DNA of 64,000 nucleotides from assembly GCA_026874595.1 (NCBI GenBank), contig CM049318.1, forward strand, positions 51,364,750 to 51,428,749, written 5' to 3'. How positions within the stretch are numbered: the stretch's first letter is position 1; each line of letters starts with the position of its first letter. Positions 15,096 through 56,012 of this stretch are shown here, piece by piece. A program made the translations under genes and the position numbers. The notes under the pieces were generated by a model. The model saw only the letters and a program-made list of their open reading frames with translations, did no database searches and was not told the origin of the DNA. The DNA is from Sipunculus nudus. Its lineage: Eukaryota; Annelida; Sipuncula; Golfingiida; Sipunculidae.

Positions 15096-16657
15096 TTTTA
15101 GCTCAGCTGACTATGAGTCACCTGAGCCATAGCGACAATCCCTTTTCCTTTGTCCGTCTGGCCGTCCGTCCATTAACAAGGCACGTTTCGATGTACAGTT
15201 AGACCTATATATACGAATACAAAATTCAACATACACTGAGTAGGCTAAGATGTTTCATACCCAAACCAAAACCTGGGTCACTGCGACATTTTTTCTTCGA
15301 GAAATTAAGGAAAACCCTCACTTGTCTTTTAAAAAACCTGTTGTTACACTTCAGCACTGCTTAATATCAAAACCACTGATCTGTTTTAGCTCAGCTGAAT
15401 ATAAAATCATCTTAGGTATATAGTGATGGTCCTATTTCCGTCTGTCGTGCCGTCCGGCCGTCCGTTGACAAGGCACGTTTTGAAACCGTTGCATTTACAA
15501 ATCTAAAATTCTGTACATGCAGTTAGATGTCCTGAAGTTTTCCTACCAAACCGAAAACTGGGTCACTGCGACTTCGTTCCTTCGAGAAATTAAGGGGAAA
15601 CCTCCGTTCTCCAGTAAAAACCTATTGTAACATTTCAAATCTGCCCACCATGAAAACCACTGGTGTTGATGTATTCATGTTTAATATAACCATTCCTGCA
15701 TATATTTCCTATATGCACATGCCATAAATCAGGTCAACATTGCGTAGAAGTGATGGGCTCAAACAAAAAGAACTTTGTCAAAAATTAGGAAATATATTTT
15801 CTCATCTAAAAAGATTATTTTTAAAGCATGAGACTATATTCCCAATTATATAACTTTATTTAATTGAGATTCAATTGTATTCCAGAAATCATATCACAAT
15901 TTTGTAAGTTTTTTAGGTTATAAGCATAATTGTAAAATTAGTACTTGCAATTTGGCCCAAAGTGAGGATCTAACTGAAGATATGTGTCAACTGCTGAACA
16001 TGTCAACAATTTATCAAAGAGCCAACCGGTGATCATGGTTATAGTATAGTTCTTATGTTTATATAAACTGCTCACATGGTTCAATCAGAAAACGCATTGT
16101 AAGATCACAAAATATTATTTTGCAACCATTCCTCACTCATCAATTTAAACCAATCATATCAACCCTGGCCTAAATTATCCCTTCCTCTCAGACTTTTTTT
16201 CTCAAATTGTTATTATTTAAGATTTTTACCTTTAAGGTCAATTTCAGCTGAACACTGCGACCCATGGGTCCAGAAATCATATCACAATTTTGTAAGTTTT
16301 TTAGGTTATAAGCATAATTGTAAAATTAGTACTTGCAATTTGGTCCAAAGTGAGGATCCAATTGAAGATATGTGTCAACTGCTGAACATGTCAACAATTT
16401 ATCAAAGAGCCAACCGGTGATCATGGTTATAGTATAGTTCTTATGTTTATATACTGCTCACATGGTTCAATCAGAAAACGCATTGTAAGATCACAAAATA
16501 TTATTTTGCAACCATTCCTCACTCATCAGTTTAAACCAATCATATCAACCCTGGCCTAAATTATCCCTTCCTCTCAGACTTTTTTTCTCAAATTGTTATT
16601 ATTTAAGATTTTTACCTTTAAGGTCAATTTCAGCTGAACACTGCGACCCATGGGTCC
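15096..16657 (+). mobile_element. Family B Helentron-like element with two 5' ends and a tandem 378 bp duplication
   Basis: Two family B 5' ends occur in tandem: AGCTCAGCTGACTATGAGTC at about 15100 with TATAGCGA- and GTCCGTC-like words, and a diverged TAGCTCAGCTGAA at about 15387. The 3' end pattern CAGCTGAACACTGCGACCCATGGGTCC appears twice, at about 16243 and 16631 (shown here as separate words: CAGCTGAACACTGCG and GACCCATGGGTCC), because 15892-16269 and 16270-16657 are near-identical tandem copies. Confidence 0.65.
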
Positions 16658-18214
16658 CTTATTTTTTTCAGTGTTGGCTGCTGGCAACATTAATCTTCAG
16701 CTCAGCTCATACAAAAGTCCTCCAGAATACAGGTAGCTTGATTCCAATGAAATAGAGAACGCTAGTTTATCTTTAAGAAATTAACTGCTACTGCAGACCG
16801 TGGTACCATACATGCAATCTTCCTGTTTTACGCATTTTACTTGTATTTTTTTAGGATGTCAAAATCGATACACTTAAACTTCAGAAACACACCGATCTTA
16901 ACTGGTAGGCTCACAAAGTTCAAACTTGACATGCTGACAGGTCATTAAAAGTCCTCTGTGGAAATAAAAAAAATTATGATCTATCTTCTTTTAATTATGA
17001 GATGAAAACGAAGGCCTCAGCACCTTTGATTTTTTTTTAAAGATTGACAAACATAACAATACATACGAAAGGCAAGATTTCTTAGGAATTGCTGGGCCAG
17101 TTGTCATGGTATTTGATTTGCTGTAAGAATCTTGAAAGCTGATGAAGATTAAGGCGCTAGCTATATATATATGCATTTTTACTTGAATGGAGATGGTGCA
17201 AAGACACAGGGTTTGAAACTCTAATAGCTCAGGAGTCTGACCAATAAATTCTTGGAAGTTCCAACTTTACATAGAGAATGCTTTCCAGAAAACACCAGAT
17301 TGCATTGTATACTTTAACATTTTTATGGCTGTATAATTTTTACCTTTTAAGTATTGCATATTAAACAATACTAGCTGCTCCTGTGGAAAATCCACGGCTC
17401 TGTCTGATGCATTTTTTAAAATGAGCTGATAGGAACTAAAAAGACGCATATTTTAATACTAAAGTTTTGCAGGAACTATTGTCACTTATATGTGTTTTGT
17501 CACTTATATGTGTTTCACTTACATGATATAAAGATTATACTTCTGCTAGAATTCCCAAGGAACAACCTCCACCAAAATGTCAAACTTAAAAAGAAAAGTT
17601 ATTCTATTCCATAAATCACACAAAAAAATAAATTCTGGAAAGAGACGTGCAGCATATACAGCGTGTACGAATTTTTAAGAAAGAAGTTTTTTTTCCCAAT
17701 AAACAACATAGGTCCGACAGCTTCATTGCTTGGGAAATATCGTAGATATAACGATTGTATAAAGAGGCATTCTACCGTCAAATTATATGAAAGACGCTTT
17801 GTATTAGTTGAAGCTCAGGCGACATCGTGAAACATGTTTATTCAGTGTAGTCAGTAGAGGGTAGAGTCTAAGGCATGTTAACTGGCACATGCGTTATTTG
17901 TATACACATGCATACGTTGTGGAATTCTCTTGTAGTCGAAACGTATTGCTACCAATGTGAAAAAGATAGACCCAGATACATATATTCCAATAGTATTAAA
18001 TTGTTGGTTTAAGTACTTTAAATCGTCATGTAATAAGCATGCAGGTCTGATGCAAAATGGACAACTCTCCCAGATAAAAAGAAAGCAGGTTGATATATTT
18101 TGATGAAGCATTATGCAAAGAAACCACTTCAGCCTTGGTTTATTGCATTGTCTTTCAGCAAATTAACGCAAAATGTAATACACAGATTTTATTGAAAGTT
18201 TGTAGAGGGGTACA
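16658..18214. other. Unassigned non-coding sequence
   Basis: Short ORFs of about 60 codons on the minus strand have no recognisable motif or splice context. No RNA gene or repeat structure is seen beyond a short (TA)n run near 17162. Confidence 0.45.
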
Positions 18215-20775: not shown

Positions 20776-22389
20776 GGTCTTTATTTCGTGCAAAAGTAAC
20801 TGAGTAAGATGAGAGGTGCGGTTACAAACAGAATATACTTTCACTCTTTAGGCCTATTAATTATCGACCTTCAGGGGGAGACTCGACACCACGCGCGCGC
20901 GCTTCCACGTGTTAAGCCCTAGAGTGTGATTTTTAAGCGCGCGGAAACAGGGGTTTCCATGTTCATGGAAAAGGTGGCTTTTTAAAAACTCTATATTGAC
21001 AGACGGTCACTTTTCTTTTTTTTTTTTTTAATAATTTTGGCCAGGGAATTGTTAGAATTAAGTTCTTCAGCTTGATGAAAAGGTGCATGTGCAATTTTAA
21101 CATTTTGGGCTGTTGATGTTCGAAATTCGGACCTTTATTTAGATAGGGCCTATGGCTGCATGGTAAGTTATACGAAATGTGTTAGGTTTAATGAACATGG
21201 ATAGAACTTCCAGCTGTTCAAGACTGGTGGTGCCACCTACATTTTTTTATTGTTTCGCATTTGAGTTTATTTTTATTTTGTACCAAGAATTACGGCTGGT
21301 CACTGGCTAACAAAGCACGAAATCTATATAACTTGACATCCGGAGGGTTCCTACTTGGTATATAAGATCTGCTTGGAGACCTAAAATTATATCTCGGAGA
21401 CCTATATATATATTCTGTTATTTATTCAATATTGTCGCCGGCGCAGTTGAAAAATTTAAACATCTATTGCTGATACACTTTTAAATAGATAAGTCAGATA
21501 AGATATCTCAGTGATGAATGTAATGATTTACTTAAATTTGGTAAGGTTATTGGTCATGGATAGCCTTTTCTGGTATATCCAACATGCACTGATGGTGCTG
21601 TCTACAATTTCTTCATTAATGAAAATGTTTGTAGTTAGAAATAGACAGGTCGCATTTCGACCCATTTTTCAGACTTAAAAATAGACAGGTCACATTTGGA
21701 CCCAAGTAAAGAAATCGTTTACATTTAATGCACAAATTGAAATAATGTGCATCATGATTGGCATGCATATGTTTCTATCGCCGTGAATATTTGAATAAAA
21801 TCTGTTCTTCACGACTGCTACAAAAAAATTGCCAAATGCAAGAATTTAATAACAATCTATAAGTTTGTATACATTTTCTGTGTCACAGATCAGCTGCATT
21901 AGCGTCATGACCCCGAGCACATATCCAGCACATATCTGCTGCGTTAATTCCCCCACGCCAAGTGTTATTTAAGTTCATAATTTTTTCTCATATATATATA
22001 TATATATATCTATTATGTGCCTACGCCTGCACATGAGACAATTAATTGAGTGAACATTATTTTGAACAATAACAATTTTCTTGTGGATCCTTAAATATAG
22101 AAATGTTTAAAAACACTAGACTTTCTATTTTAGTAACAAATTTGGCAATGGATTTTTGTTTTTGTTTATAATTTAAAATAATAACAAGATTTTAATATTG
22201 TCTCCTATAAATAAGTTCAATGTTTTTCTTGTTTAAGTACTCCCCATAGGCCGATTTATGGTTTTACGGAGATTAAGTGGCATATTTTGGCATGGACACG
22301 TTTGCTGATTCAAGATACGTTCTCTTTCACATGTGATACACTACTGCAGCAGCATGGGGTCACTGATTTTCAGGAGAGCCAGTGCTTTA
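20776..22389. other. Non-coding sequence with a short TA run
   Basis: No exon is supported. It contains a CG-alternating stretch near 20893-20902, a TGGTGGTGCCACCTAC word near 21224 like those in the internal units of families A-C, and a (TA)n run at about 21990-22009. Confidence 0.4.
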
Positions 22390-29492: not shown

Positions 29493-32400
29493 ATATTTCT
29501 TGCCCATATATCAAGCAAGCTTCATCTTTGATGAAAATTAACAGGGAAGATGGAGCAATTTACATTGGACACAAGTGATGCAGAGTCTGAGGGCCCAGCA
29601 TCCAGCAACTCCTCGTGGTCCAGCGGCATCGTCGCTAAGATAGAGGACCTCCAGGCAAAGCTTGACACCCTGTACCTCAGACACAGGCAAACCATCAAAA
29701 GGGTGTGTGTCAGTGAGGACATAATAGTCTATTCCAATAGTTTGTATGGAATGTATCACAAGTATGTACAACATTGTTTGCAATCAAGAATGAAAAAAAT
29801 GCCAAATTCAAAATAATCTTGTTTCCATGTTTATAAAAAATTATTATATTTTTCATGTTTAGTAATGATCAAAATTGTTCATATGATAATCCAGTTTCAA
29901 GTAGTTATCGGTAATTAAAAATAATTGATACCAGAAGTGTTTCAGGTTGATCCTGTTTCATATTGATTTTCATGAAAAATAAATTATAGGGATATATCTT
30001 TCTCATTTAGATACCATACTTGAAGAAAAAGTTACATTATCAGATTCAAGACACCCTTGGCCTTTCACTTGATAATTTATATTACCACCTTAAGTACGTA
30101 TCATTCACTATATCAATTTAGATACAGTGTGATTATTAACAGTATCTGTATTGTACTGGTCTTTGTATTGTTAATTACAGCTGTGTCTGATTGTTGCCCT
30201 ACTGGTGTATTTGGTGTACTTTGGTTGGGCGATATACCTGGATCCTGTAAGAGCAAAGCCTTTGATCGTGTTGACGAGTCTGGCTGCTCTGCTGGTCGTA
30301 CTTATTGTTCTGAAGAAACACTGTGGTACGAAGATAAGAAAATCCACCCGAAAAATCTCCCGCCAATTCACACCCAAAATACGGACTGTAGCAAACTGGT
30401 GAGTATCAACAGAACTTTTTTTCCCTTTACCATTCAGTTTACTGATTGGCTTAATAGACCTCTCCAATTACCCTAGTGACACCTGTCTTCAATAATTGAC
30501 ACTGATTGTTCAGGTCAGCTATATCAACAAGAAAGTTCAAATTTGTTATATCTTAGTTGACTTATTAAGTTATAAATTATAGTGATAAACCTAACTTATT
30601 TTTAAGGATCATGTTCCAGCCTGGGTTCCTGGATTATTTGTTAAGTTATTCATATTGTACAGTTGTCATATCTTTGGATGTTTTTATCTCAGCTGACTGA
30701 AAGTCATCTGAGCTATAGCGATCATTCTTTGTCCGTCGTCCGTCTGTCTGTCCGTCTTTTAACCAGGCACAAATCGTAACCACTGGACCTAGAATCTTGG
30801 AACTTGGCATTCTGAGAGGTCCATGAATAATCTCCTTGGAAACCAGAAATTAGGTTTCTGTTACTCATATCCTTCGAACTATGGGGCCCAAAAGAACCCC
30901 CCAGAATAGTAAAAAATTTCATACAAAAACTTCAATATCTCATTAACTACATCACTGATGGTCATGATTTTTGGCATACCTATTGATCATGAGATGTTAC
31001 ATCAGTTTCTGCAGACTGGTGGTGCCACCTGTATTTTTTTATTTTTACGAATTGTTTTCTATATTTTTGAGACCTTAAAAAATGTCAACAGCTGTTAACA
31101 GGGCAAAAATAGTAAAGACTGGACCTTGAAACTTCATTCTTGACACAGTGAGAGACCTATGAAAAGTCTCCATGGAAACCTGAAATAAGGTCTCTGTTAC
31201 CCATATCCTTAGAGCTTCGAAGCTCCCAATTATCCCCCAGAATAATGGAAAATTTGATAAAAACAAACTGCAACATATCAATAACTACAACACTGATGGT
31301 CATGATTTTAGGCATACATATTGATCAAGAGATGTTCCATCAGTTCCTGCAGACTGGTGGCGCCACATGTATTTTTTTCAAATTTTCACAATTTTTTTTT
31401 TTCTCTAATTTTGAGACCTTTAAGGATATCGTTATCTGTCAACAGGGTACAAATCGTAATGACTGGACCTAGAATTTTCATTCTTAACACACAGGGAGAC
31501 CTATGAAAAGTCTCCATGGAAACCTTAAATTAAGTCTCTGTTACCCATATCCTTTGAGCTATGGCACTCCAAAGTACAGCTTAGAATAATGGACAATTTG
31601 ATACAAAAGCTGAAGTATCTGAACAACTAATGCAGAGATCACCATGATTCTTTGTATGGATATTGATTATGGGGTGTTTCATCAGTTTCTGCAGACTGGT
31701 GGCACCACCTATATTTCTTCGGGTTTTTTTTTACGAATTTCTTTCTCTATTTTTCAGACCTTTAAAGATATGAACATCTGTTAACAGGGCACAAATCATA
31801 ACAACTGGACCTAGAATCTTCATTCTTGACACACAGGGAGACCCATGAAAAGTCTCCATGAAAACCTGAAATTAGGTCTCTGTTACCCATATCCTTTAAG
31901 CTGTATGGCCCCAAATTACCCCCCAGAAAAATGGAAAATTTGATACAAAAACTGCAGTATCTCAATAACTACAACACTGATGGTCATAATTTTCGGCATA
32001 CATATTGATCATGAGCTGTTCCATCAGTTTTTGCAGACTGGGTGTGCCACCTCTATTTTTTCAAATTTTTACGAATTTTTTTCTCTATTTTTGAGACCTT
32101 TAAAGATGTGGTTATCTGTCAACAGGGTACAAATCGTAACAACTGGACCTAGAATCTTCATTCTTGTCATGCAAGGAGGCCCATGAAAAGTGTCTGTGGA
32201 AACCTGACATTAGGTCTCTGTTCCCATATCCTTCAAGCTATAGGACTCCGAAGTATCCCTCAGAATAATGGACAATTTGATACAAAAGCTGAAGTATCTG
32301 AACAACTAATGCAGAGATCACCATGATTCTTTGCATGGATATTGATTATGGAGTGTTTCATCTGTTTTTGGAGACTGGTGGTGCCACCTATATTTTATTC

Positions 32401-35400
32401 AATTTATCGAATTTGTGTCTCTATTTTTTAGACCTTTAAGGATGCTGTCATCTGTTAACGTGGCAAAATTGTAACAACTGGACCTAGAATCTTCATTCTT
32501 GTCATGCAAGGAGGCCCATGAAAAGTGTCTGTGGAAACCTGAAATTGATCTCTGTTACCCATATCCTTCAAGCTATAGGACTCTGACATATCCCTCAGAA
32601 TAATGGACAATTTGATACAAAAGCTGAAGTATCTGAACAACTAATGCAGAGATCCCCATGATTCTTTGCATGGATATTGACCATTAAGTGTTTTTATTAG
32701 TTTCTGCAGACTGGTGGAGCCACCTGTATTTCTGTATCCACCAAAAAGTTTTGTGGATACTATGTTTTTCACCGGGTTCCGCCGCCGCCGCATTCGTTTC
32801 CAGAGAACTCCTCTGAGACTATGGACCCATTTTTCCGAAACTTACACCAGTTGTCAGGTCACATGTGAACTGATGCCTAACCAATTTTCGTTGACCTCTG
32901 ACCTTTCCTCTCTGCCCAGCGTCCATTTGTGCGTCTGTTTCCAAACATTAAACCCTCATATCTTGGGAACCATTTGACGGATCAGGAAAAAAAATTTTTA
33001 TACAAATGTAGCCCTTGGATAGCTTTATAACATACACAAAAAATGGTGGCACCGCCTGCAACCATGTTTGCACAGTGTTCATCTGTTCATCTGCCTTGGG
33101 TTAAAATCACTCATATCTCTGCAGTGAATTGACTAATTCACCTGAAATTCGGCATGGGTATACATACTGGATATCTTTCTTGATTCTATGACAGGTGGCA
33201 CCACCTACATTCACGTTCATGCTGATGACATCCAAGCTCATATCTCGGGAACCGTTTGACTGATTGGGCCAAAATGTTGCACGTTTATAGATCTCACAGA
33301 ACTCTTTTTTCATACACAAAACTTGAGGGGCCACCTGCAGCCATTTTTGCACAGCGTCTGTCTGTTTGTCTGCTGTGGGCTAAAATCACTCATTTCTCTG
33401 TAGTGGTTTGACATAACTGCCTAAAATTTTGCAGGTTTATACATCCTGGACAGCTTTCTTGATTTTATGACAGGTGGTGCCACCTTCATTCTAGTTAAAG
33501 CTGCAGACATCGAAGCTCATATCTCAGGAACCATTTAACAGATTGGGCCAAAATTGTGCTTGTGTTTAGATCTCACATAGGTCTTTATCATACACAAAAC
33601 TTGAGGGGCCACCTGCAACCATTTTTGCTCAGCGTCTGTCTGTTCGTCTGCTGTAGGCTAAAATCACTCATATATACATGTAGTGGTTTGACTTTTCTGC
33701 TTAAATTTCGCATATGTATACAACTTGGAAAGCTTTCTGGATTTTTTTTCACAACCTACATACACATTTAGGCTGCAGACATCCATGCTAATATGCAACA
33801 TACCTCGCTTTATTTCCCGTTGCCACTCAATCAATGCCTCACTTCACCCGTTCCACTCAGATTTTGGCGGATACACGTAGTCGCTTGTCGGCTACCCATA
33901 TTCTAGTTTTTAAAGTTTACGCATTTTTTCTCTATTTTTGAGATATATAAATACAGACTCAATCTTGGCCTGTTGGTTAATCTGTTTGATGCTTCAGTTG
34001 AATGGGTATATACTACCATACTGATGATAAAATTTCCTTTTGCGAATCTCTTCCCAGTCAGCTGAGCGTCATGACCCGTGGGTCACTTGTTGGATATACC
34101 ATGATTATTATTGAGGTCCCCCATAATGCCATAAGCATGAGCCTTGGCTTGTTGCAGCATGTTTATTTAGAACATTAATTTTTATTCGTGACTTTTGATA
34201 CCTTCAGTGTATTGTAGATGGTGCTGATTAGCAATTATGGTTTGAAAAAAAGATTTATTAATGTGTTTGATTTTGGCAGTGTGGACTTAAATGTCTTCCA
34301 CATGTGGAGGTGTAGGATTTTTCCCGCAGATAATATAAAACAACACAGGAATTTAAGTTTAAAATCACCAGTTTTTCAAAAAGGTCAGTCCAAAACATAA
34401 ACTGCCAGTCTATTAGTTAAACATGATAATTGGGGAAGCTAGAACAATTGCGGCTACTAAACTTCACCTTATGTCCAGTGGCCCACGTCTGGATCATTCA
34501 AGCACAAGAGAAAAGTTGCATTTTGCACACTGCTGTAGGCCAGCCTACTTTACAGCAGGGGTGGCCTATTAATGGGTCAGTCCAAATATATAGATAGGAG
34601 GGGTGGTAGGTGAAGTGACATCTTACAGAGTTTATTTTGATTCATCAGATTAACACTAGATGGAGCTGATAGGACACTTGAGATATTACAGTAAATAATA
34701 TAAACTGTTAAATATATCACAGCATATTTATATATGTAATAAATGATGACTACTATTAAGATAATGTTCTCCTCCTTGCCTGCAGGCTAATCTACCTGTG
34801 TGTGATGATGTCACTCATAATTTTTATCGCCGTGAAAGTGCAACCCAATCCGAGGCAGCTGGTGGCCCTGGGTGGCATGGCAACCTTCATCACCTTGCTG
34901 TTTGTTATGTCAAAAAATCCCTCCAAAGTAAGTACAGGCAACCTGTCCAGACCAGGTAACCCTTTATAATACACACTAAGTCACTTGAGGCCTGCCCCCA
35001 TTAAAAGTACACAAAAATGTTCAGCTCTTGGATATATAGCTCCTGTCAGTGTGTATAAATGGGATGACCCAGCTACATTTAAAAGAGAATTATTAGAATT
35101 AAAGATGAAATAAAGAAATTAATGGAATAACATTTTAATGACTAATGAAATTTAATTTAAAAAAATGTTTTACATGCTAATTAAGTCTCTTGGATTATGA
35201 AACATCTTTGGTTACATAAAAATCTTTATACTTGCTTATTAAGTTAAGGATGTCTAAAAAAATTGAAATATAATGGTATGGTCTCAGTTTGTTCTGAATG
35301 TAATACATTACAGCGATTTGTCTGTAGACACAGGTGACCTAGGTCCACAAATTTATGTTAGTTGTTAATAACCTCTGTATCAAGCTACTTGTAAAGATTT

Positions 35401-38400: not shown

Positions 38401-41400
38401 GCGACCGTTTATTCCCTATATGACAAAAAGTGAGTTGCATGCTATCATGACCACTGGTTTTGGAACAATTGCTGGAGGTGTCATGGCTGCCTATATTCTG
38501 TCTGGGGTGAGTGTTTTTTTACTTTAAAAAAAATTTACTTCACAAGATCTGTGAAAGATGGTAAAGTTTAAAGTGCAAGTTCTAAAGAGCAGATGGAATC
38601 CAATGTTTGTGATACTATCAACAAATTAGGCATCTTATGTTAAATGATGAATATAATTATAAAAATATAAATTGGAATTTAAAAAGTACTTTTAAAATGT
38701 TTTTTTCACTGCACCTAACTCAATTTTTTCAGGTTTCATAATTTGTGGACTTTCATAAAATTTATAAGTTTAAAATTATATCAGTCATTAAAATCAGTCT
38801 TATACATCTATGTAGTTATGTTTTTATGAATTTTTCACTTCTTTGAAAGTTGAATGCCAGAATCAAAATCTATGTTAGTTTTGTTTGTAGTGACAGCAAG
38901 ATTGTACATCAAAACAGTCTGTTTGTTAATCACTTGCGAGGGTTGTTTTTGCTCATTGTTTCTGGTCAGTGCTGTGGGCCATAAGAAACTCTTCCAAGGT
39001 CTGGTCCTTTTATGTTTCAACTGTGTAGTATGTTTTGATAAATTTGACAGACAGCTGCTGTAGTGTATATTAATCATTGCAGGTACCGGCTGAGCACCTG
39101 ATCTGTGCATCGGTGATGAACGCCCCTGTTGCCCTTGGTCTTGCCAAGCTGTTCTATCCTGAGACTGAAAAACCTTGTAATGTGTCAGAGAGTCTGGAAC
39201 TGGAGAGAGGGTAAACCCTGAAACTAAATAAAATTTTATTTTACAATTTATAAGTTCACAATTATTGTCAGTATTGGCCTGATTTAGGTATCAGCCATTA
39301 GGAATCTTTTATTTGCAAAATTGTCTAACTTGTAATACAAATCCATTTTTCCTGTTCATGCTAGGAATTACCAGACAACAGTTCTCACGGCAGAGACTGA
39401 ATATATATTATGCAATAACACTAAGTTACAGTATAACATATTCATATATACATAAATATAATTATTAAACTTCTCTGATTATAAATACGTCTGTCTATGA
39501 AGAGATGTATAACCTTATGCCCACGGTCAATCCGTCGGATAACTTTTAGTGTCGCCATGATAACTTATCAGGGCTTGGATGGATTTTTACAAAACTCACC
39601 AAAACTTATTTACCAATTGATTATCTCACCTGAGTTTTATTATGAGCAAAATCCAAGCATATGTAAAAAATCAAAGGTCACTGGGTTACTTTGTGGTGTA
39701 GATTTGATAACTTACCAGGAATATAATGGATTTTCTTAAAACTCAATAGAAATATTAATCAATATAAATTCTCACCTGTATTGGATTTTAAGCAAAATAC
39801 ATGCATATTTAATAAGGTCAAGAGGTCACCAGATTTTGGTGGCACTGTGATGATAGATTTTCATGAAACTCATTATGAATATAAACCTATAGATTCTCAC
39901 CTGAATAACATTCTCAGTAAAATTCACACATAATTAATTAGGGCAGGGGTTACAAGATAAGTGGCTGGCATTTTAATTGCAGTGAACAATAAATTTTAAC
40001 TTATTACAGTAAAGAGAGGAACATTTTGGAGGCTGCGGCTGCAGGCGCTGCAGCATCAATCAAACTGGTGGCGAACATTGCTGCTAACCTGATCGCATTC
40101 CTGGCATTGCTCAAGTTCGTGGATACAACCCTCGGCTGGCTAGGATCCATGGTCAATCACCCTGAACTCAGCTTCCAGGTAAATTGCAACTCTGTAATGT
40201 ATCACAAATGGCTACTGTTCTTATTGCAGATCTGAAAACGTGTTCCTTCTAAAAATTTATTAATTAGGATTTTAAAGTAAAGCGTGGTATGACCGGACTG
40301 TTTCTGCAAAACTAAGTTATTTCACTCATGTACTGCATTCTACATGATGATTTTCCTTGATATTTGTAATTTCAAGAAAGCTGTTGATAATAAAATATAC
40401 TTTTGAGTATAGTGATTTTTAGCCCTCAGCCCTTAGGCTGATGGGCTTTTGTCATCACCCAAGCTGTCCGTCCGTCCGTTCGGCATCCATTAACTTTTAC
40501 CTTGTGAGTGGGATATCTTAAAAAGGATTCGCTGTCAGAATTTTATTTCCTCGGTAAAGATGTATATCGACAAAATCTCGGTCAAGTTAAAAGATGGGTG
40601 ACCGTGACCTATTTTTCTACATTTTAGAGCAGATTATAGAAAAACACTTAGATGCTTATTACTCAGGAACCATTTGGTGGATTTTCACAAAACCTACTAT
40701 GATTATTGGGACTGATAGTCTGTACCTGCTACACAAGTTTGGTGGCACCACCTACAATTTCTGATTTTTAATGAATTTTTATCGGATTTTTCAACTTTGG
40801 GCTTGTGAGTGGGATATCTCTAAAAGGATTCACCATAGGAATTTTATTTTTTCGGTGAAGATGTATATTGACAAAATCTCAGTCAAGTTTTAAGATGGGT
40901 GACCTTGACCTATTTTTCTACGTTTTAGAGCTGATTATAGAAAAAACATTTAGAAGCTTATTTTTCAGGAAACATTTGGTGGATTGTTATGAATCATGGT
41001 ACATACCTCTCCATTTTAAATTTATAACTGAGACATGTACAGATATACATCCATGTGAGAACAGATATTTAGTACTTGTTACTGTTACCACCCCTAAACA
41101 CTGTTCTTTTGGCTGAGGGCTTTTGTCAGCTTCTGCTGATATTCTAGTTTTTATTTATACTTAAGTCAACAGGTAATGCAGAGGCTGTGTGCGACTATTT
41201 CTCAATTCAAATTTAGGACCTACTTTGGTCAGAGTATTTACTGAATGGGTCTCATTCAGCTTTAAGATTCAGCCATTGTTGAATGTTCCTTGAATGACGT
41301 CCAGGACATGCATACATTTAACATTGCAGCTGCAACCCTGCTTTATGAATAGTGTGTTGATAGACTTATGGTCACATATGATGTGAACATGCTTGGAATA

Positions 41401-44400
41401 TTATGATAATTCCAGACTATTTGAAATATTGCTGTAGATTTAAAAGATGAAAACATGTATGGAAATTTTTGACCAAAAAATTAATTGTATTCTAAATACT
41501 CATCCAGTGTTATAGTTTTTGGTGAAATATTAACATTTTTCAGTGAAATATGTGATTTAAATTAAGTCCATATTGTACCAACGATCTTCACTGAATGATA
41601 TGTTTATTAATAGTTCATCTGTTATCCACCAGGTGGCGTGTGGTCACCTGTTTTTGCCTGTGGCCTATTTGATGGGTGTCGAATGGGAGGACTGCACAGA
41701 AGTGGCCCGTCTTCTTGGGATCAAGTCCTTCACCAATGAGTTTATTGCTTACAAAGAACTCTCCAAGCTCATTAAAAATAGAAAAATGTGCACTGGGCCG
41801 TCCATATCTGTAAGTGAAAAGTATTAAAAAGATGGGATATGCAAGTGGTATGTGTGTCTAAATATGTGGGAAGGAATTTTTTTCAGAACTTTGTTAAAGC
41901 CAGCCTAGCTTTTCTGTAGTATTTATGTGATATCTGGCTTTTAATTAATAAAATGTTGGTTAAATAACTGTAAGGAAAGTTTGTATTATGTGATGGATGT
42001 ATTAGTTTGTTTATCTACAAGTTGTTGGTAAACAAATTACATGTGCCAGTATTGACAAAAAGGAAAACCATGTAAGCCAAGGTGGTGAGTTTTATTTTGC
42101 AGTCTTTTGCATTCTGTATTAATTATTCTTGAAAAATAAATCTATAATATTAAATGAATTCAGTTAAAAAAAATCATAAATTAGGCAGGGTTCTCAGGCA
42201 CCATGTGCGTCAAATTTGACCCTTGGTATCAAAAATTTTGATTATGATTTTCAATAGAAACTTACCAATTTCGAACTCAAGCTACTGGAATATTTCTTTC
42301 AAGAAGATAGAAATAATACAATTTTGACATTTTTATCGAAACCTACAAAAAAGGTTTAAAAAATTTGCCCTGGTGCATTGATTTCTGAAAAACCTGAGAA
42401 CCCAACTTTTTTTGGTCTTTATAATTATAACAGTTGCATCACTTTCTTTATAAGAATTCCCTATGATGTATCATATATTTGAATTTAATTTTAGATACGC
42501 TCTGAGGTCATCTGCACCTATGCGTTGTGTGGCTTTGCCAACCTGAGTTCAATAGGTGTCCAGCTGGGAGGCATTGGTCCAATGGCCCCTAACAGAATGG
42601 GAGACTTGGCCAAGGTTGTCCTCAGAGCCCTTATATGTGGAACTGTCGTCTGCTTTATGAGTGCTTGTGTAGCAGGTAAACAGATATGCATACGACTAAA
42701 CACTATTTGTAATAATAACATTAAAATAATGATAAATATTATTCATATAGCGCCATTTCTCTGGAACTTGCAGCACTACATGTACCTATACCTGCATTCA
42801 GAGCATGGTTTCAAAGAACCCTTCCCCTGGTACCTCTCCCCAAACCCTAACTCTTTCTCATTCACAGACTTCCATGTGACACGTTGATACTTTAAGATTT
42901 TCCCCTCAGCTTACACAAAGGCTGCAAGTTTTATTTTTTTCTTGATGTTCTGATTTTTTAGCTCAGCTGACTGAAAGTCATCTGAGCTATAGCGATCACT
43001 CTTTGTCCGTCGTCCGTCTGTCTGTCTGTCTGTCCTACTGTCCGTCTGTCTGTCCGTTAACCAGGCACAAATCGTAACCACTCTGTAAGTTCTCTGTTAC
43101 TCATAACCTCTGAGCTATGGGGCTCCGAAGTACCCCCCAGAAAAATGGAAAATTTGATACAAAAGCTCAAGTATCTGAACAACTATTGCATTGATCACCA
43201 TGATTCTGTGCATGGATATTGATCATGGAATGTTTCATCAGTTTCTGCAGTCTGGTGGCGCCACCTATATTTTTTTTATTTTTACGAATTTTTTTCTTTA
43301 TTTTTGAGACCTCTTGAGATGTGGTCATCTGTTAACAGGGCACAAATTGTAATGACTGGACCTAGAGTCTTCTCTATTGAAATTCCGGGAGGCCCATGAA
43401 AAGTCTCTTTGGAAACCTGAAATTAAGTCTCTGTTACCCATAACCTCTGAGCTATGGGGCTCCGAAATACCCCCCAGAATAATGGAAAATTTGATTCAAA
43501 AGCTCCAGTATCTGAACAACTATTGCATTGATCACCATGATTTTGTGCATGGATATTGATCATGGAATGTTTCATCAGTTTCTGCAGTCTGGTGGCGCCA
43601 CCTATATTTTTTCGATTTTTACGAATTTTTTTCTTTATTTTTGAGACCTCTTGAGATGTGGTCATCTGTTAACAGGGCACAAATTGTAATGACTGGACCT
43701 AGAATCTTCTCTCTTGACATGCTGAGAGGCCCATGAAAAGTCTCTTTGGAAACCTGAAATAAAGTCTCTGTTACCCATAACCTCTGAGCTATGGGGCTCC
43801 GAAATACCCCCCAGAATAATGGAAAATTTGATTCAAAAGCTCCAGTATCTGAACAACTATTGCATTGATCACCATGATTCTTTGCATGGATATTGATCAT
43901 GGAATGTTTCATCAGTTTCTGCAGTCTGGTGGCGCCACCTATATTTTTTCGATTTTTACGAATTTTTTTCTTTATTTTTGAGACCTCTTGAGATGTGGTC
44001 ATCTGTTAACAGGGCACAAATTGTAATGACTGGACCTAGAATCTTCTCTCTTGAAATTCTGGGAGGCCCATGAAAAGTCTCTTTGGAAACCTGAAATTAA
44101 GTCTCTGTTACCCATAACCTCTGAGCTATGGGGCTCCGAAGTACCCCCCAGAATAATGCAAAATTTAATACAAAAGCTCAAGTATCTGAACAACTTATGC
44201 ATTAATCACCATGATTCTTTGCATGGATATTGATCATGGAGTGTTTCATCAATTTCTGGAGATTGGTGGCGCCATCTATATTTTTTTTATTTTTTACGTT
44301 TTTTTACTCTACTTTTGTGATCTTCAAACATTTGGTCATCTGTAAACAGGGCACAAATCATAATGACTGGACCAAGAATCTTCTGTCCTCACCTCCAGGG

Positions 44401-47400
44401 AAGCCCATAAAAGGTCTACATGGAAACCCGAAATAAGGTCCCTGTTACCCATATTCTGTGAGCTATGGGGCTCTGAAGTACCCCCCAGAATAAAGATTTG
44501 GTCATATATTAACAGGGCACAAATCATAATGACTGGACCTAGAATCTTCTTTCTTGACATGCAGGGAGGCCTTTGAAAAGTCTCTTTGGAAATCTGAAAT
44601 TACCCCCCAGAATAATGCAAAATTTAATACAAAAGCTCAAGTATCCAAAGAACTGATGCATTTTCCCCCATACTTTGCACCGATATTGATCATGGAGTGT
44701 TTCATAAGTTTCTGCAGACTAGTGGCACCACTTGTATTTTTTTGTTATTTTTACATTTTTCACTTTATTTTTTAGACCTTTTAAGAAACATATTATATGG
44801 TCATAATATTTATTCAAAACAACAGCAAAAATAATAAAATCATTTGTTGTTTTTCTTGTTTTGCTACTACCAGGTACACAAGCTCAGTCTTGTAGCTGAC
44901 TTGTTTTATGTTTGGACAGATAATGACAGTTACAGATCGAGTATGCATTTCGTCCCAGTTGACCTACTTTTGATTGTTTTACAGCTCCTAAACATAGAAA
45001 ATTTCATTAAAGACAGAAATTTTTATGGAAAATTCACATGTATGGACTTTTTTTCACAATGCCTGCAGAAACTGGCCTGATTTTTGGTGTGTTGCTTGAT
45101 AATGACCCATTACAGATCAAAATTGCATTTTGCCCTTGTTGACCTACTTTTGACCATATGACCCCTCCTGAACTTAAAAAAATTCACAAAATTTAACAAA
45201 TATTTCTAATTTGCTCCAAGCAATGCATTCGTGTCATTCCGACACATCTAGTTTACAAATTGTTTTCTCTATTTTTGAGACCTTTAAAAATGTGAACATA
45301 TGTTAGCAGGGCACAAATTGTAAAGACAGGACCTAGAATCTTCAGTCTTGACATTCTGAGAGACCTATGAAAAGTCTTCATTGAAACCAGAAATTAGGTC
45401 TCTGTTACCCATTTCCTTTGAGCTATGGGGCCCCAAAGTACCCCCCAGAATAGTGAAAAATTTCATAAAAAAACTTCAATATCTGATTAACTACATCACT
45501 GATGGTCATGATTTTTGGCATACATATTGATCATGAGATGTTTCTTCAGTTTCTGCAGACTGGTGGCGCCACCTGTATTTTTCAAATTTTTACAATTTTT
45601 TTCTTTATTTTTGAGACCTTTAAGGATGTAGTTATCTGTCAACAGGGTTCAAATTGTAAAGACTGGACCTAGAATCTTTATTCTTGACATTCTGAGAGAC
45701 CTATGGAAAGTCTCCATGGAAAACAGAAATTAGGTCTCTGTTACCCATATCCTTTGAGCTATGGCACTCCAAAGTACAGCTCAGAATAATGGAAAATTTG
45801 ATACAAAAGCTGAAGTATCTGAACAACTAATGCAGAGATCACCATAATTGTTTGCATGGATATTGATCATGGAGTGTTTCATCAGTTTCTGCAGCCTTGG
45901 TTAGCCACCTCTATTTTTTTCGATTTTTTATGAATTTTTCTCTATTTTTGAGACCTTTAAAAATGTGGACATCTGTTAACAGGGCACAAATCATTAAGAC
46001 TGGACCTAGAGTCTTCAGTCTTGACATTCTGAGAGGCCTATTAAAAGTCTGCATGAAAACCTGAAATAAGGTCTTATTATCCATATCCTTCGAGCTATGG
46101 GGCCCCAAAGTATACCCCAGAATAGTCAAAAATTTCATACAAAAACTTCAATATCTTATTAACTACATCACTGATGGTCATGATTTTTGGCATACATATT
46201 GATCATGAGATGTTTCATCAGTTACTGCAGACTGGTGGCGCAACCTGTATTTTTCGATTTTTGAATTATTTTTTTTTCTATTTTTGAGACCTTGAAAAAT
46301 TTGGACATCTGTTAACAGGGCACAAATTGTAAAGACTGGACCTAGAATCTTTATTCTTGACCTTCTGAGAGACCTATGGAAAGTCTACATGGAAAACAGA
46401 AATTAGGTCTCTGTTACCCATTTCCTGCAAGCTATGGGGCCCCAAAGTACCCCCCAGAATAGTGAAAAATTTCATACAAAAACTCCAGTATCTCAATAAC
46501 TACAACACTGATGCTCATGATATTTGGCATACATATTAATCATGACATGTTCTATCAGTTTCAGCAGACTGGGTGTGCCACCTCTATTTTTTTTCAAATT
46601 TTAAGAATTATTTTCTCTATTTCTGACACCTTTAAAGATGTGGTTATCTGTCAACAGGGTACAAATTGTAACAACTGGACCTAGAAACTTCATTCTTGTC
46701 ATGCAAGGAGGCCCATGAAAAGAGTCTGTGGAAACCTGAAATTAGGTCTCTGTTACCCATATACTTCAAGCTATAGGACTTCAAAGTATCCCTCGGAATA
46801 ATGGGAAATTTGATACAAAAGCTGAAGTATCTGAACAACTAATCCAGAGACCACCATGCTTCTTTGCATGGATATTGACTATTAAGTGTTTTTATTAGTT
46901 TCTGCAGACTGGTGGAGCCACCTGTATTTTTTTAAAGTCTACGCATTTTTTCTCTGTTTTTGAGATATATTAATACAGACACAATCTCAGCCTGTTGGTT
47001 CATCTGTTTGATGCTTCAGTTGAATGGTTATATACTACCATTCAGATGATAAAATTTCCTTTTGCAAATCTCTTCCCGGTCAGCTGAGCGTCATCACCCA
47101 TGGGTCACTTGTTATTAATTGGACTATGTCAAAAAAAGACTTGGTTTAGGAAAAAGGTGATATATATATATATGTATTGTTTGTTGAATTGGACTGCTTA
47201 AGGGTGATTTAAGGATGTAAAGGATGTGCAAAAATTGCAGTAACGATCAAAATTTATTCCTTGTTAAAATGTTTAAACAACCTTGAAAATTAAATTTAAA
47301 AAAAGTTGTTGGTATGTGTTGGTGCATATTGTTTTGGTTAATTACAATCCAATTATTTGCCAGGCAATATCAACTTTGTCTTAATTTTTCTCAGGGCTAC

Positions 47401-51875: not shown

Positions 51876-53033
51876 CAAGGGACCCATGGGTCACGGCGCT
51901 CAGCTGTTATATATGATCACAAAAAATGATTTGGAAGAGGAGGTAGGCAAAGGCTGGTTTTGTGTGGTAATATAAGCTCTATTATGAGTTGACAGTGTTT
52001 AATTCAAGTTGTGTAAGATTTTGATAATACCCTTTGAGACAGGGAAAAGGATTGATGTCATTAATACTATTTACAGTTGGAAATGGTGTGCTATTATCAC
52101 ACAGGTTTTGACTTGGCCATAAAACTTTACGTACATTGCAGCAGAATTATTTGAAAAGTTAAACTATTTATTAAAAATTAATAAATGTTGTGTCAAATAT
52201 AATTTAAAATTAAATATGATAACAGTATCATCTGTTTTTATCAAAGATTTTTTAATAATATTACCAAAATAAATGTAAGGGAATACAACAAGAGCCTAAA
52301 AAAAAATTCAATAACTAGCCTAATTTTGCAGCTTTTATTTTCAAATTTAAGATTTTAACAGATTATTTCCTTATGTGTACATGCTGTGAAAATTAAATCC
52401 ACAATACTTACAGGAAAAAAATGTGCCATGGCCAAAGTTGGGCAAAATTTAAGGTACCAGTTTTATATTTTTGCTAATATTTAAAAAATTTAACAGATTT
52501 TGATCAAATTTTTGGTATACAATTAAATTTTGATTAATTAAAGTTGTATTACTGGAAAAAAGTCCCTACCTTAACACTTTTGGTCTTAAGTGACCAAATT
52601 TCTTTCCTGATTTTTTTTACAAAGTCCATTATGTTTGGGCCCATAACTTTTTTAAATTAGATAATACTGATTTAATTTCTGGCATATACATAGGAACAAT
52701 ATAGAGGAATATTTATGGTAAATATGAAGAAAACCAGATGAGTGGTTTTGATATTAGGCAGTCCTGAAGTGTGAAAATAGATTTCTAATAAAAAATTGAG
52801 GTTTTTCCTTAATATCTCAAAAGAACGAAGTCCTATTGACCCAATTTTCAACATGGTAGAAGTTTTTTGGGACATCTAACTGTATGCCGAATTTCAGATT
52901 TTTAGGTCCAATGGTGTCAAAACGTGCCAGTCTTACAGACGGACATCTGGACGGAATGGGCGGACAGCTAGACGGACGACGGACAATGGACAACAACTAT
53001 AGCTCAGTTGACTTATAGTCAGCTGAGCTAAAA
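51876..53033 (-). mobile_element. Family B Helentron-like element, minus orientation
   Basis: On the minus strand the 5' palindrome AGCTCAGCTGACT...AGTCAACTGAGCT (right end near 53033) is followed by TATAGTTG, GTCCGTC-type words, and a long unique interior without the 337 bp array. The 3' part has CAGCTGAGCGCCG, the hairpin TGACCCATGGGTC and terminal CCTTG followed by TT at 51876. Confidence 0.7.
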
Positions 53034-53376
53034 ACCCACGCATTTTTTTAAGGTCAGAGGTCAAAGACCTATGACAGGTGTATTATGCACCATTTCTGTG
53101 CTCTTCTTAAAATCTGTCATAAGGCATTGTATTATTCTCTGCAATAAAAGCAGCAGCCAATTCCTATACCCTCTTCTTGTAATGAGGGGGCAGCGAATGA
53201 ACACACATGCAAAATGGTGAAAAATCAAATAAAACAATTCATGAGAGGAAATATATATTTTATTTTATATCTATACATATGTGATGATGTGGTCTGAATA
53301 AATAATTGTAAAGTACAATCAAAATTCTCTCATGAACATGTTCTCCCATGCACAGATATGAAAAATATATTATGAA
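53034..53376. other. Unassigned spacer between two mobile elements
   Basis: AT-rich spacer with an AGGTCAGAGGTCAAAG word near 53053. No gene. Confidence 0.4.
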
Positions 53377-54892
53377 CTAGAATACGGGTAGTCGACAAGC
53401 GACTACTTGTATCCGCCTAAATCAGAGTGGAACGGGTGAAGTGTTGCATATTAGCATGGATATTTTATCCCATGGCAGACAAACAGATGGGAGCTGTGCA
53501 AACATGGCTGCAGGTGGCGCCACCAGTTTTGCGTATGATAAAGAGCTATGTGAGATTTATACACATGCAAAATTTTGGCCCAATCGGTCAAACGGTTTCC
53601 TCGATATGAGCTTGGATGTCGCAGCGTAAACTTGATTGTAGGTGGCGCCACCTGTCATAAAATCAGAAAAGCTATCCAGGATGTATAAGCATGCCAAATT
53701 TCAGGTGAATTAGTCAAACCACTGCAGAAATATGAGTGATTTTAACCCAAGGCAGACGAACAGATGGACACTGTGCAAACATGGTTGCAGGTGGTGCCAC
53801 CATTTTCGGTGTATGTTATAAAGCTCTCCAAGGGCTACATTTGTGCAAAAAAATTTTCCTGATCGGTCAAACGGTTCCTGAGATATGAGCTTAGATGTCT
53901 GCAGCGTAAACGTGAATGTAGGTGGCGCCACCTGTCATAAAATCAGAAAAGCTATCCAGGATGTATACGCATGCTAAATTTCAGGTGAATAAGTCAAGTC
54001 ACTGCAGAGATATGAGTGATTTTAACCCAAGGCAGACAAACAGATGGACACTGTGCAAACATGGTTGCAGGTAGCGCCACCATTTTTGGTGTATGTTATA
54101 AAGCTCTCCAAGGGCTACATTTGTGCAAAAGAATTTTCCTGATCGGTCTAACGGTTCCTGAGATATGACTTTTGATGTCTGCAGCGTAAACGTGAATGTA
54201 GGTGGCGCCACCTGTCATAAAATCAGAAAAGCTATCCAGGATGTATACGCATGCCCAATTTCAGGTGAATTAGTCAAGTCACTGCAGAGATATGAGTGAT
54301 TTTAACCCAAGGCAGACGAACAGATGGACACTGTGCAAACATGGTTGCAGGTGGCGCCACCATTTTTGGTGTATGTTATAAAGCTGTCCAAGGGCTACAT
54401 TTGTGCAAAAGAATTTTCCTGATCGGTCAAACGGTTCCCGAGATATGAGCTTGGATGTCTGCAGCGTAAACGTGAATGTAGGTGGCGCCACCTGTCATAA
54501 AATCAGAAAAGCTATCCAGGATGTTTACGCATGCCCAATTTCAGGTGAATTAGTCAAGTCACTGCAGAGATATGAGTGATTTAAACCCAAGGCAGACGAA
54601 CAGATGGACACTGTGCAAACATGGTTGCAGGTGGCGCCACCATTTTTGGTGTATGTAATAAAGCTCTCCGAGGGCTACATTTGTGCAAAAAAATTTTCCT
54701 GATCGGTCAAACGGTTCCCGAGATATGTGGGTTTATGTGTGGAAACAGACGCACAAACGGACGCAGAGCGCAAAGGAAAGGTCAGAGGTCAAAACAAAAT
54801 CGGGGCGCAGCAGTTCACATGTGACCCGAACATAATCCCGGGTTTCGGAAAATTCCGCCCAGCGGTTACGGAGGAGTTCTCCGGACACCTAC

Positions 54893-54953
<61 letters not shown>

Positions 54954-54999
54954 CCAGCTGAAAACATAGTATCCGCAAAACTCTGTTTTGGCGGATACA
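53377..54999 (-). mobile_element. Family A Helentron-like element with a 280 bp satellite-like array, minus orientation
   Basis: Read on the minus strand: the 5' palindrome GTATCCGC...GCGGATAC (about 54999-54970), then a (CCG)n tract, GTTGACC-free DR-like words (GACCTCTGACC), an internal array, GGCGGATACAAGTAGTCG, the 3' hairpin GTAGTCG-CTTGT-CGACTAC and terminal TATTCTAG followed by T. The palindrome-containing word AGGTGGCGCCACCTGTCAT starts at 53640, 53920, 54200 and 54480, a spacing of exactly 280 bp, with a second, half-unit copy between each pair. ORFs beginning MAPPTFTFTLQTSK are repeat translations. Confidence 0.88.
54893..54952. repeat. (CGG)n trinucleotide tract inside the family A element
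   Basis: About 20 uninterrupted GGC/CGG units. The matching position in the copies at 12390 and 32782 has only a few CCG units. The poly-Gly and poly-Pro ORFs across it are artefacts of the repeat. Confidence 0.95.
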
Positions 55000-56012
55000 A
55001 TTATCCATCCAGCATACATTCCTTGCACCACAAATGATTAAACAGACAAAAAGATTTCTGGCAAATGTAAATGATATAAACTGACATTGTAACAGTGAAA
55101 TTCTGAAGGTACATTAACATTTACTATGCATAATATCTCAAGCTTTTAGTTTGCTTCAGCTGAATATAATACGGGAATTTCCCAGCAAAACCATCATAGC
55201 ACACAGATTAGTCCCCAATCCACCTGAGCTATAGTGATCACCCTTTTTCCATCATCTGTATGAAGCTCAGCAGTAAGTTCAGCTAAAAAGTACAACCAAA
55301 CTCTTATGAGACCCACTGAAATAGTCTTGTTCCTGTAACCTGACAATTGCATACCCCTGAACATTTGACATGTCATTTGATCAAATTGGTTTCTGTTGGG
55401 CTGTGAAAGGAAATATATGTCACAATAGGAAAATATTTATGAACAAAAATTGCACACAGGGTAACTTTTGCATATAATGGCAAAGTACCTGAGGCAGAAC
55501 AAGATGTCTTCATGCAAAATATAACATACTGATGTTTGTCATACATAAAAGGTAATTAAATTCATCAGTCTCTAATAAAATTGCATATGTTTTGCATATA
55601 TTAACATTCATAACCCATCTGATGTGCTTACCCCTAGTGGCAAAGGGTCAAGAATACCATTGTATAACCAGTATTATAAAAGGTAATCCTTTATATAGGG
55701 TCTACTCATTCCCCCTAAGAAAAATTCATTCCTATAAATACATATATAAACTTAATGTATAGCCAATATATGTGGACGAACTGAACATACTGGAACTGAC
55801 ATAGAACATACTGGACTTACCTGTACCTATAGTGACTGTTTCATCTACTCATGTCAGCAGGTTTAATCACCCTGCAGGAAAGCTACAAGACTGATTTAAT
55901 CAGACTTAATATTATAAAGCCCTGTCATATATTGAGTCTGATATCCATACTGTGAGAGATTCTACAATATAAGCCACAGTATAAGATCTGTTGCATCTTA
56001 ATTCTTTGACTT
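55000..56012. other. Unassigned non-coding sequence
   Basis: No exon is supported. A short piece at 55165-55200 (TTTCCCAGCAAAACCATC) is a fragment of the repeat at 4741-4890. CTGAGCTATAGTGATCACCC at 55223 is a relic of a family B 5' end. Confidence 0.4.

What the first reader, a model, noticed from the sequence alone, without database searches (positions are those of the whole stretch)
53377..54999. At least three repeat families share one Helentron-like (HINE/DINE-1) architecture
Family A (12340-13807, 32732-33906, 53377-54999), family B (30686-34089, 42960-47111, 51876-53033, 15096-16657, 1-1291) and family C (40421-41147) have unrelated sequences but the same layout: 5' palindrome of about 30 bp, GTCCGTC or CCG-rich stretch, internal tandem units, inverse complement of the 5' arm near the 3' end, a 3' hairpin, and CTAG or CTTG then T. 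A and C even share the terminal octamer TATTCTAG. This layout is known for non-autonomous Helentrons. A parallel diversification of several such families around one gene would be worth documenting.
Basis: partly seen in the sequence, partly recalled or inferred. Interest (0 to 1): 0.75.

Follow-up and report, generated by a model that had tools for sequence, protein, structure and literature searches.

The report
Tandem-repeat-carrying rolling-circle jumping DNA families
Several families of non-coding "hitch-hiker" transposons sit in and around this gene; their ends, empty insertion sites and a matching protein-coding element elsewhere in the same genome indicate that they belong to a known kind (non-autonomous Helentrons), with an unexpected short palindrome shared by families that otherwise look unrelated.

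Summary
The layout is real. Families A, B and C look like non-autonomous Helentrons (HINEs) that carry tandem repeats, a kind described in the oyster Crassostrea gigas. Window copies have a subterminal inverted repeat (9-12 bp in 6 of 7 tested), a 3' palindrome, and CTAG or CTTG before T.
A: 20 of 20 fetched copies share the borders; 19 of 20 sit at TNATT; empty sites show no duplication beyond a few T.
B: 30 of 30 3' ends are CTTG|T, 29 of 30 CTTG|TT.
C was checked only in the window.
The genome has 143 Helitron Rep matches. One intact 2,235-aa protein has OTU-Rep-PIF1-endonuclease. Another intact 2,342-aa Rep/helicase element on C17 is followed by a B-type 3' end (31 of 34 nt); a decayed relative on C8 has similar spacing. 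This is the likely partner of B, though its 5' end was not read. No convincing partner was found for A; C was not searched.
Corrections: A and B are genome-wide, not local. A, B and C repeats share a palindrome, GGTGGCGCCACC (25 hits, 0.05 expected). "B" covers several interiors.

The parts
53375..55000 (-). Family A copy w53: 5' TTGTATCCGCCAAAACAGAGTTTTGCGGATAC palindrome (54969-55000), 20-unit GCG triplet microsatellite (54893-54952), 4.5 tandem 280-bp units (53462-54727), 3' subTIR + hairpin + CTAG (53377-53417), then TT (53375-53376)
   Evidence: same borders in 20 of 20 fetched genome copies
32732..33906 (+). Family A copy w32, inserted in a T-run of B1; 2.5 units of 279 bp; 5' end partly mutated
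   Evidence: empty site in other B copies
12339..13807 (+). Family A copy w12, most diverged of the three (about 81% to 20 young copies at both ends), interrupted by an ~860-bp insert at about 12839-13703
30684..34089 (+). Family B copy B1: 5' palindrome, GTCCGTC stretch, 336-344-bp units, 3' subTIR GTCAGCTGAGC, palindrome, CTTG|TT; split by A w32
42958..47111 (+). Family B copy B2: two arrays of about 337-bp units around a non-repeat middle
51876..53033 (-). B-type element with a different interior
   Evidence: BLAST similarity to B1/B2 at the ends only
15096..16661 (+). Composite B-type element: 5'-like ends at 15096 and 15384, 386-bp tandem duplication copying the 3' hairpin, decayed 3' end
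1..1291 (-). 5' part of a B-type element with its own tandem units, cut by the window edge
   Evidence: complete relative L064
63699..63732 (-).
40418..41147 (+). Family C: 5' TAGCCCTCAGCC palindrome, GTCCGTCCGTCC, two repeats (193 nt, 86.5% identical, 301 bp apart), subTIR GGCTGAGGGCT, hairpin, TATTCTAG|TT
   Evidence: genome copies not tested (searches unanswered)
40741..40752 (+). Shared palindromic box (GGTGGCACCACC) in family C
43254..43265 (+). Shared palindromic box GGTGGCGCCACC in the 337-bp B units; 12 boxes (up to 1 mismatch) against 16 unit copies found in B1 and B2
53641..53652 (-). Shared palindromic box GGTGGCGCCACC, usually two per 280-bp A unit (11 A boxes: 9 in w53, 2 in w32, 0 in w12)
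21226..21237 (+). Same box outside the three families; the sequence around it resembles a B unit, mainly at the box

Best explanation
A, B and C are HINEs: non-coding Helentron derivatives moved in trans by Rep/helicase proteins of Helentrons in the same genome. Proposed steps, inferred from established rolling-circle (Helitron/Helentron) models: the protein nicks at the CTAG|TT or CTTG|TT 3' end, peels off one strand with the subTIR and 3' palindrome as recognition and stop signals, and inserts it at a T-rich target (TNA|TT for A), leaving no duplication beyond T residues. Tandem units between the ends are cargo. Shown here for A and B: borders, target preference, empty sites and genome-wide spread; also intact Helentrons, and a B-type 3' end downstream of an intact Rep/helicase ORF. 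For C only the layout of one copy is shown. Inferred: trans-mobilisation itself, and that this Helentron family serves B.
For: A borders in 20 of 20 fetched copies, with TT on both sides 20 of 20, A at -3 in 19 of 20 and T at -5 in 20 of 20. Empty sites for 9 A copies (14 comparisons; L011 and L017 share one flank), cleanest for L010, L011, L013: one TT in the empty site, two in the filled. B 3' end CTTG|TT 29 of 30, one of the 30 being the window's B2; TT before the B 5' end in 10 of 10 copies examined with both ends; one clear B empty site, L035 versus L024. subTIR test. 143 Helitron_like_N and 150 PIF1 matches. L059: one 2,235-aa ORF with OTU, Helitron_like_N, PIF1 and Exo_endo_phos and Rep motif IEFQARGSPHAH, with the Helentron-type S. 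C17: Rep and PIF1 matches both lie in a 2,342-aa frame, with a likely stop 1,045 nt before a B-type 3' end, 31 of 34 terminal nt as in B1/B2.
Against: The 5' end of the C17 Helentron was not read. A pattern for B-type 5' ends with a different interior gave 60 places, none near C17 or C8 (by design it would catch only about a third of possible interiors, my estimate). The last 60 nt of C17 and B1/B2 align at only 45-46 identities in 65 columns, so a different subfamily. The same-family Helentron C13:9109249 has no B-type end in the about 1.6 kb read after its ORF (only a 4-mismatch match to the 17-nt palindrome), and C13:66180677 none in 1.65 kb. L059 carries no A, B or C ends in 10 kb. No convincing partner for A; C untested genome-wide. 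The A copies were chosen from the 40 scored of 486, all 100% identical to the query, so are biased to young ones. The 3' hairpins are not beyond shuffles as lone structures.
Confidence: 0.88

Rival explanations
1. MITEs of cut-and-paste transposons that duplicate TT on insertion.
For: The extra TT in filled sites could be read as a 2-bp duplication.
Against: No inverted repeats at both very ends: the 3' copy lies 23-41 nt inside the terminus and is followed by a second palindrome and CTAG/CTTG. The empty sites keep the bases before TT once only. A Rep/helicase element is followed by the same 3' end as B.
Confidence: 0.04
2. The B-type 3' end behind the C17 and C8 Helentron ORFs is a B-family HINE of another subfamily that happened to insert there.
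For: B ends are abundant (1,022 first-look candidates); 65 and 111 partly overlapping ends have other sequence just before them. The C17 5' end is unread.
Against: Found in 1 of 3 stretches picked blind behind intact ORFs. Similar spacing from PIF1 on the same strand on C8; my hand estimate of coincidence is about 0.01 or less for each.
Confidence: 0.15
3. Canonical Helitrons (A|T insertion, CTRR end) or Helitron-Helentron intermediates rather than Helentrons, at least for A.
For: A ends CTAG and its empty sites can be read as A|T insertion of an element that starts TT. C. gigas has CTAG-ending elements with subTIRs that its authors call possible intermediates (PMC7992393, passages); Phytophthora has a proto-Helentron with 5' TT, 3' CTAG and A|T insertion (PMC4067079).
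Against: subTIR, 5' palindrome and microsatellite together are HINE features (PMC4067079, PMC7492417); the one protein read in full here is Helentron type with endonuclease, but it is not shown to serve A.
Confidence: 0.1

Closest known systems
Cg_HINE elements of the Pacific oyster (Vojvoda Zeljko et al. 2020, PMC7492417; abstract, sections 6-9 and part 1 of 2 of the Discussion read)
   Same: 11-12-bp subTIR with an inverted partner in the 5' flank, often a GTCY/GTCC microsatellite, tandem units, 3' subTIR plus palindrome, T-rich TT target, no target duplication, several unrelated families in one genome, related flanks with unrelated units
   Different: Units here are 280 and 337 bp (140-180 bp there); A prefers TNATT; here a Helentron followed by a matching 3' end was found, whereas the oyster authors could relate none of 10 autonomous elements to their HINEs
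HINE-Mo / DINE-1 and their Helentrons (Thomas et al. 2014, PMC4067079; abstract, parts 1-2 of 3 of Results, passages read)
   Same: subTIRs close to the 5' end and inside the 3' end, 3' palindrome, TT target, Rep-helicase-endonuclease elements in the same genome
   Different: Here the 3' subTIR lies 23-41 nt from the 3' end (about 38-60 there); terminal CTAG/CTTG is strict in A and B; tandem arrays dominate many copies
Helitron-like elements of C. gigas with CTAG ends and subTIRs (PMC7992393; passages read)
   Same: CTAG 3' end with palindrome upstream; 257 of 751 have subTIRs
   Different: 5' TC and mostly A|T insertion; only 1 had a microsatellite
FoHeli1/2 of Fusarium oxysporum (PMC5148889; passages read)
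   Same: Asymmetric terminal inverted repeat plus hairpins; target TNAT next to T (figure legend) or A (main text), like the TNATT of family A
   Different: Autonomous fungal elements that end ATTTT; no tandem arrays in the passages seen
Pearl / DTC84 / MgE elements and BIV160/Cg170 satellites of bivalves (as described in PMC7492417 and PMC5139131; passages read)
   Same: Modular elements with satellite-like units; divergent units that share short conserved motifs or a palindrome

Membership tests
HINE (non-autonomous Helentron) | Subterminal inverted repeat of about 11-15 bp, 5' copy near the terminus, 3' copy inside the 3' end | tested here: met
   11 bp in A_w53, B2 and C, 12 in B1; shorter in A_w12 (10), B3 (9) and mutated A_w32 (7)
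HINE (non-autonomous Helentron) | Palindrome between 3' subTIR and 3' end | tested here: met
   present across copies of A and B; as a lone structure not beyond shuffles
HINE (non-autonomous Helentron) | Insertion in TT/T-rich target without other target-site duplication | tested here: met
   for A and B; C only flanked by T in the one copy
HINE (non-autonomous Helentron) | Microsatellite or tandem repeats inside | tested here: met
HINE (non-autonomous Helentron) | No coding capacity of its own | tested here: inconclusive
   no stop-to-stop frame longer than 128 aa within the A, B and C spans; those frames were not searched against families
HINE (non-autonomous Helentron) | Autonomous Helentron partner with matching ends | tested here: inconclusive
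   B: 3' end matches, 5' end unread and not found by pattern; A: none convincing; C: not searched
Helentron (C17, autonomous candidate) | Rep + PIF1 helicase in one open frame | tested here: met
   both matches report a 2,342-aa open frame without stops
Helentron (C17, autonomous candidate) | C-terminal AP endonuclease | not tested
   Coding letters of C17 beyond the last few codons were not available; L059 has it
Helentron family rule of Thomas et al. | At least 11 bp identical subTIR (family); at least 80% over last 60 bp (subfamily) | tested here: inconclusive
   3' subTIR GTCAGCTGAGC identical in C17, B1 and B2 (family met on the 3' side); last 60 nt 45-46 identities in 65 columns, so subfamily not met
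Canonical Helitron | 5' TC, 3' CTRR, hairpin, A|T target | tested here: not met
   5' end is TTGTATCC (A) or TTAGCTC (B), not TC; B ends CTTG. A does end CTAG and can be read as A|T insertion

The most novel reading that the evidence does not exclude
The 12-bp palindrome GGTGGCGCCACC, followed in element orientation by TRYA-like letters, is a functional module shared by HINE families with unrelated ends. It could be a binding site for a host DNA-binding protein or for the Helentron protein, so that tandem arrays act as multi-copy docking sites and spread by convergent acquisition or by descent from one very old repeat unit.
Probability: 0.2. Interest if true: 0.6.

Novelty: new member of a known kind. 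Interest (0 to 1): 0.42.

Why it matters
The oyster study left open whether tandem-repeat HINEs have autonomous Helentron partners (PMC7492417, Discussion). Here one genome holds young HINEs, intact Helentrons and one Helentron family followed by the B-type 3' end, which makes that question directly testable. The TNATT target and the shared palindrome give concrete signals to test in how such elements spread satellite-like repeats.

Tried and rejected
Rejected: local diversification around the SLC28-like gene (A and B are genome-wide). Not accepted: a partner of A on C6. An A-type 3' end at C6:50110131 (minus) lies 13 kb from a Rep at C6:50123428 (plus); by hand estimate chance alone gives about 0.2 such pairs. 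C6:21759426, a B-type end 8.5 kb behind a Rep on the same strand (PIF1 at C6:21765739), is a weaker third candidate for B.

Homology of the A, B and C repeat units beyond the box was tested by pairwise alignment and profiles and stays inconclusive. One search was contaminated: 8 of 60 'B' units came from two loci (L050, L055) with other units and were dropped. One search gave no scores because of an option clash and is void. In one search, the two A halves match each other clearly (0 of 200 shuffles). A-B with the box kept: 34, 8, 3 and 13 of 200 shuffles reach the real median. With the box cut out: 1, 5, 8 and 200 of 200. Against C: with box 188, 0 and 4 of 200; box cut 200, 0 and 200. Against the 21226 sequence: with box 3, 43 and 7; box cut 200 in all three.

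A text search for the box (40 papers listed, titles and abstract starts seen) showed no transposon paper; it looks only at printed letters.

Family C genome copies: not completed (as DNA; 120, 122, 126, 130, 132, 137, 140 as a pattern). Host species was not identified; 'probably a bivalve' is my inference from the repeats.

Full report
What is there. The window is contig C13:51,364,750-51,428,749 of an unnamed 1.43-Gb genome. It contains exons of an SLC28-like nucleoside transporter (Pfam Nucleos_tra2_N in frame 35461-35778, Gate in frame 36186-36533; the SLC28 name is recalled), with repeat elements in and around it.

Family A. All three window copies have the stated borders within 2 nt. A search with the 85 nt at the 3' end found 486 first-look candidates; the 40 scored were all 100% identical to the query. 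I fetched the first 20 of these 40 with flanks. In 20 of 20 the element runs from a GTATCCGCCAAAACAGAGTTTTGCGGATAC palindrome (two copies with one change each) to GGCGGATACAAGTAGTCGCTTGTCGACTACCCGTATTCTAG. On the 5' side, TT is at -2/-1 in 20 of 20, A at -3 in 19 of 20 and T at -5 in 20 of 20; on the 3' side TT follows in 20 of 20. These copies were picked by identity, so they are biased to young insertions. Lengths run from 1,035 to 1,978 nt. A further 59 A-type 3' ends with other letters before the subTIR exist, 0 for the reversed pattern.

The cleanest (L010, L011, L013) have TNA|TT once, whereas the filled site has TT on both sides. The rest differ by 1-3 letters in T-runs or have the difference displaced by small indels (L016, L021, L024). 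No longer duplication is seen. Whether TT belongs to the 5' end, the 3' end, or is a 2-bp duplication cannot be told, as already noted for HINEs (PMC4067079, Results). One window copy of A sits in the T-run of a B element.

Family B. A 126-nt query from the 3' end of B2 gave 1,022 first-look candidates, 40 scored. Loci were returned for 30 (one is the window's B2); all 30 end CTTG followed by T, 29 by TT. Ten copies with both ends that I examined (6 of the 30 loci, 3 window copies, L064) all have TT before the 5' end. One clear empty site (L035 versus L024) shows the same single TT. Interiors differ: B1/B2 have 337-bp units; B3 resembles them at the ends only, and 1-1291 at the 5' end and in short unit matches. 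L064, 2,425 nt, is a complete relative of 1-1291 (96% over 811 nt). Genome-wide, patterns that demand B's 3' end but a different sequence just before it found 65 and 111 (100 listed) places, partly overlapping, against 0 for reversed patterns. Three B-type ends on C8 are spaced exactly 1,690 bp (L065; the ends in L065 read CATG rather than CTTG). This looks like head-to-tail tandem elements or a local tandem duplication; which one was not tested.

Family C. One copy at 40418-41147 with an 11-bp subTIR (0 of 500 shuffles) and two repeats 301 bp apart (86.5% over 193 nt). Its genome copies could not be tested because the searches did not complete.

Shared box. GGTGGCGCCACC with at most one mismatch occurs 25 times in the window; shuffles give a mean of 0.05. 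Of these, 11 are in A, 12 in B, 1 in C and 1 at 21226, in sequence that resembles a B unit mainly at the box. Read in element orientation the box is followed by TRYA-like letters in A, B, C and at 21226, with few exceptions. In 23 A copies (20 fetched, 3 window) there are 190 boxes in 37,893 bp, and 2 in 6,900 bp of flanks, both where A sits in a B element; w12 has none. Similarity beyond the box is weak and mixed: all controls are in Tried and rejected. In bivalves, conserved short motifs shared by otherwise divergent satellite units are already reported (PMC5139131, passages). Whether this is the same motif could not be checked.

Autonomous elements. Pfam PF14214 (Helitron_like_N) has 143 matches in the genome (195 candidates, 150 scored), PF05970 (PIF1) 150 (256 candidates, 150 scored). 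The ORF in L059 is a 2,235-aa protein with OTU, Helitron_like_N, PIF1 and Exo_endo_phos domains and the motif IEFQARGSPHAH. The S before P is described as diagnostic for Helentrons (PMC4067079). Two relatives read behind their ORFs (C4, C8:80.14 Mb) share repeated units offset by about 330 bp, with no match to A, B or C beyond AT runs. No A, B or C ends were found in the 10 kb of L059.

Partner of B. I then fetched the predicted 3' regions of three further intact ORFs without knowing their sequence. One of three, C17:35624900-35626550, contains TGTCAGCTGAGCATCATGACCCATGGGTCACTTG|TTTTT, which is 31 of 34 nt identical to the B1 and B2 ends, with an identical 11-nt subTIR. It lies on the strand of the Rep/PIF1 ORF (2,342 aa, no stops), 4,713 nt after Rep, 2,532 nt after PIF1 and 1,045 nt after the likely stop codon. 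The stop is inferred from similarity to the C13:9109249 relative (87.7% over 65 nt; reading frames). By hand I estimate the chance of each coincidence at about 0.01 or less. A third, looser case is on C6 (Rep 21767953, PIF1 21765739, B end 21759426, all minus strand). The other listed places (11 places are not listed) are not within 10 kb downstream of a listed Rep, as compared by eye.

Limits. A positions-only pattern for B-type 5' ends found 60 places, none near C17 or C8; it covers only part of the possible 5' sequences. C13:9109249, of the same coding family, shows no B end in the stretch read, nor does C13:66180677. By the rule of Thomas et al., C17 and B fall in one family on the 3' subTIR but not in one subfamily (last 60 nt 45-46 identities in 65 aligned columns for B1/B2).

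Verdict. What is added here is a probable Helentron partner for one such family, a TNATT target for another, and a palindrome shared by families with unrelated ends. I found no report of an autonomous partner for bivalve tandem-repeat HINEs in my searches (listings, and passages or sections of 6 papers), which cover only open-access papers; and that this host is a bivalve is itself inferred.

Noticed in passing
window 12839-13703 (minus strand), inside family A copy w12: An insert of about 860 bp interrupts this A copy; it looks like a solo LTR or retroelement (TGTCTGACAGG...CGTAACA, TATAAATA inside, AGATG at both edges as a possible duplication). Read by eye, not searched.
   Followed up: partly
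L065 (G000:C8:31839700-31841700) and C8:31839809, 31841499, 31843189: Three B-type 3' ends spaced exactly 1,690 bp: head-to-tail tandem elements or a local tandem duplication.
   Followed up: partly
G000:C8:14694359, 14704615, 14789611, 14799879 (minus strand): Two pairs of B-type 3' ends, each about 10.26 kb apart; no Rep match is listed there (one search scored 150 of 195 candidates).
   Followed up: no
L060, L061 (3' regions of Helentron copies on C4 and C8): These Helentrons carry repeated units offset by about 330 bp right after the Rep/helicase/endonuclease ORF, so autonomous elements seem to carry satellite-like arrays too.
   Followed up: partly
L059:8518-9273 (minus strand) and the N-terminus of L059:1810-8514: STPR repeats (score and three amino acid peptide repeats): above the Pfam cut-off in the upstream frame, just below it in the main ORF.
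   Followed up: no
L055 and L050: B-type 3' ends with units unlike the B 337-bp unit upstream, some resembling A units (one search list): chimeric or nested elements.
   Followed up: no
window 10257-11056: A 300-bp stretch is repeated at 500-bp spacing at 100% identity, so probably a recent duplication.
   Followed up: no
window 9260-9721 (minus strand): Fragment of a reverse transcriptase (RVT_1).
   Followed up: no
window 62285-62580: Empty counterpart, about 84% identical, of the insertion site of A copy L016; the region overlaps a 146-bp tandem repeat.
   Followed up: yes
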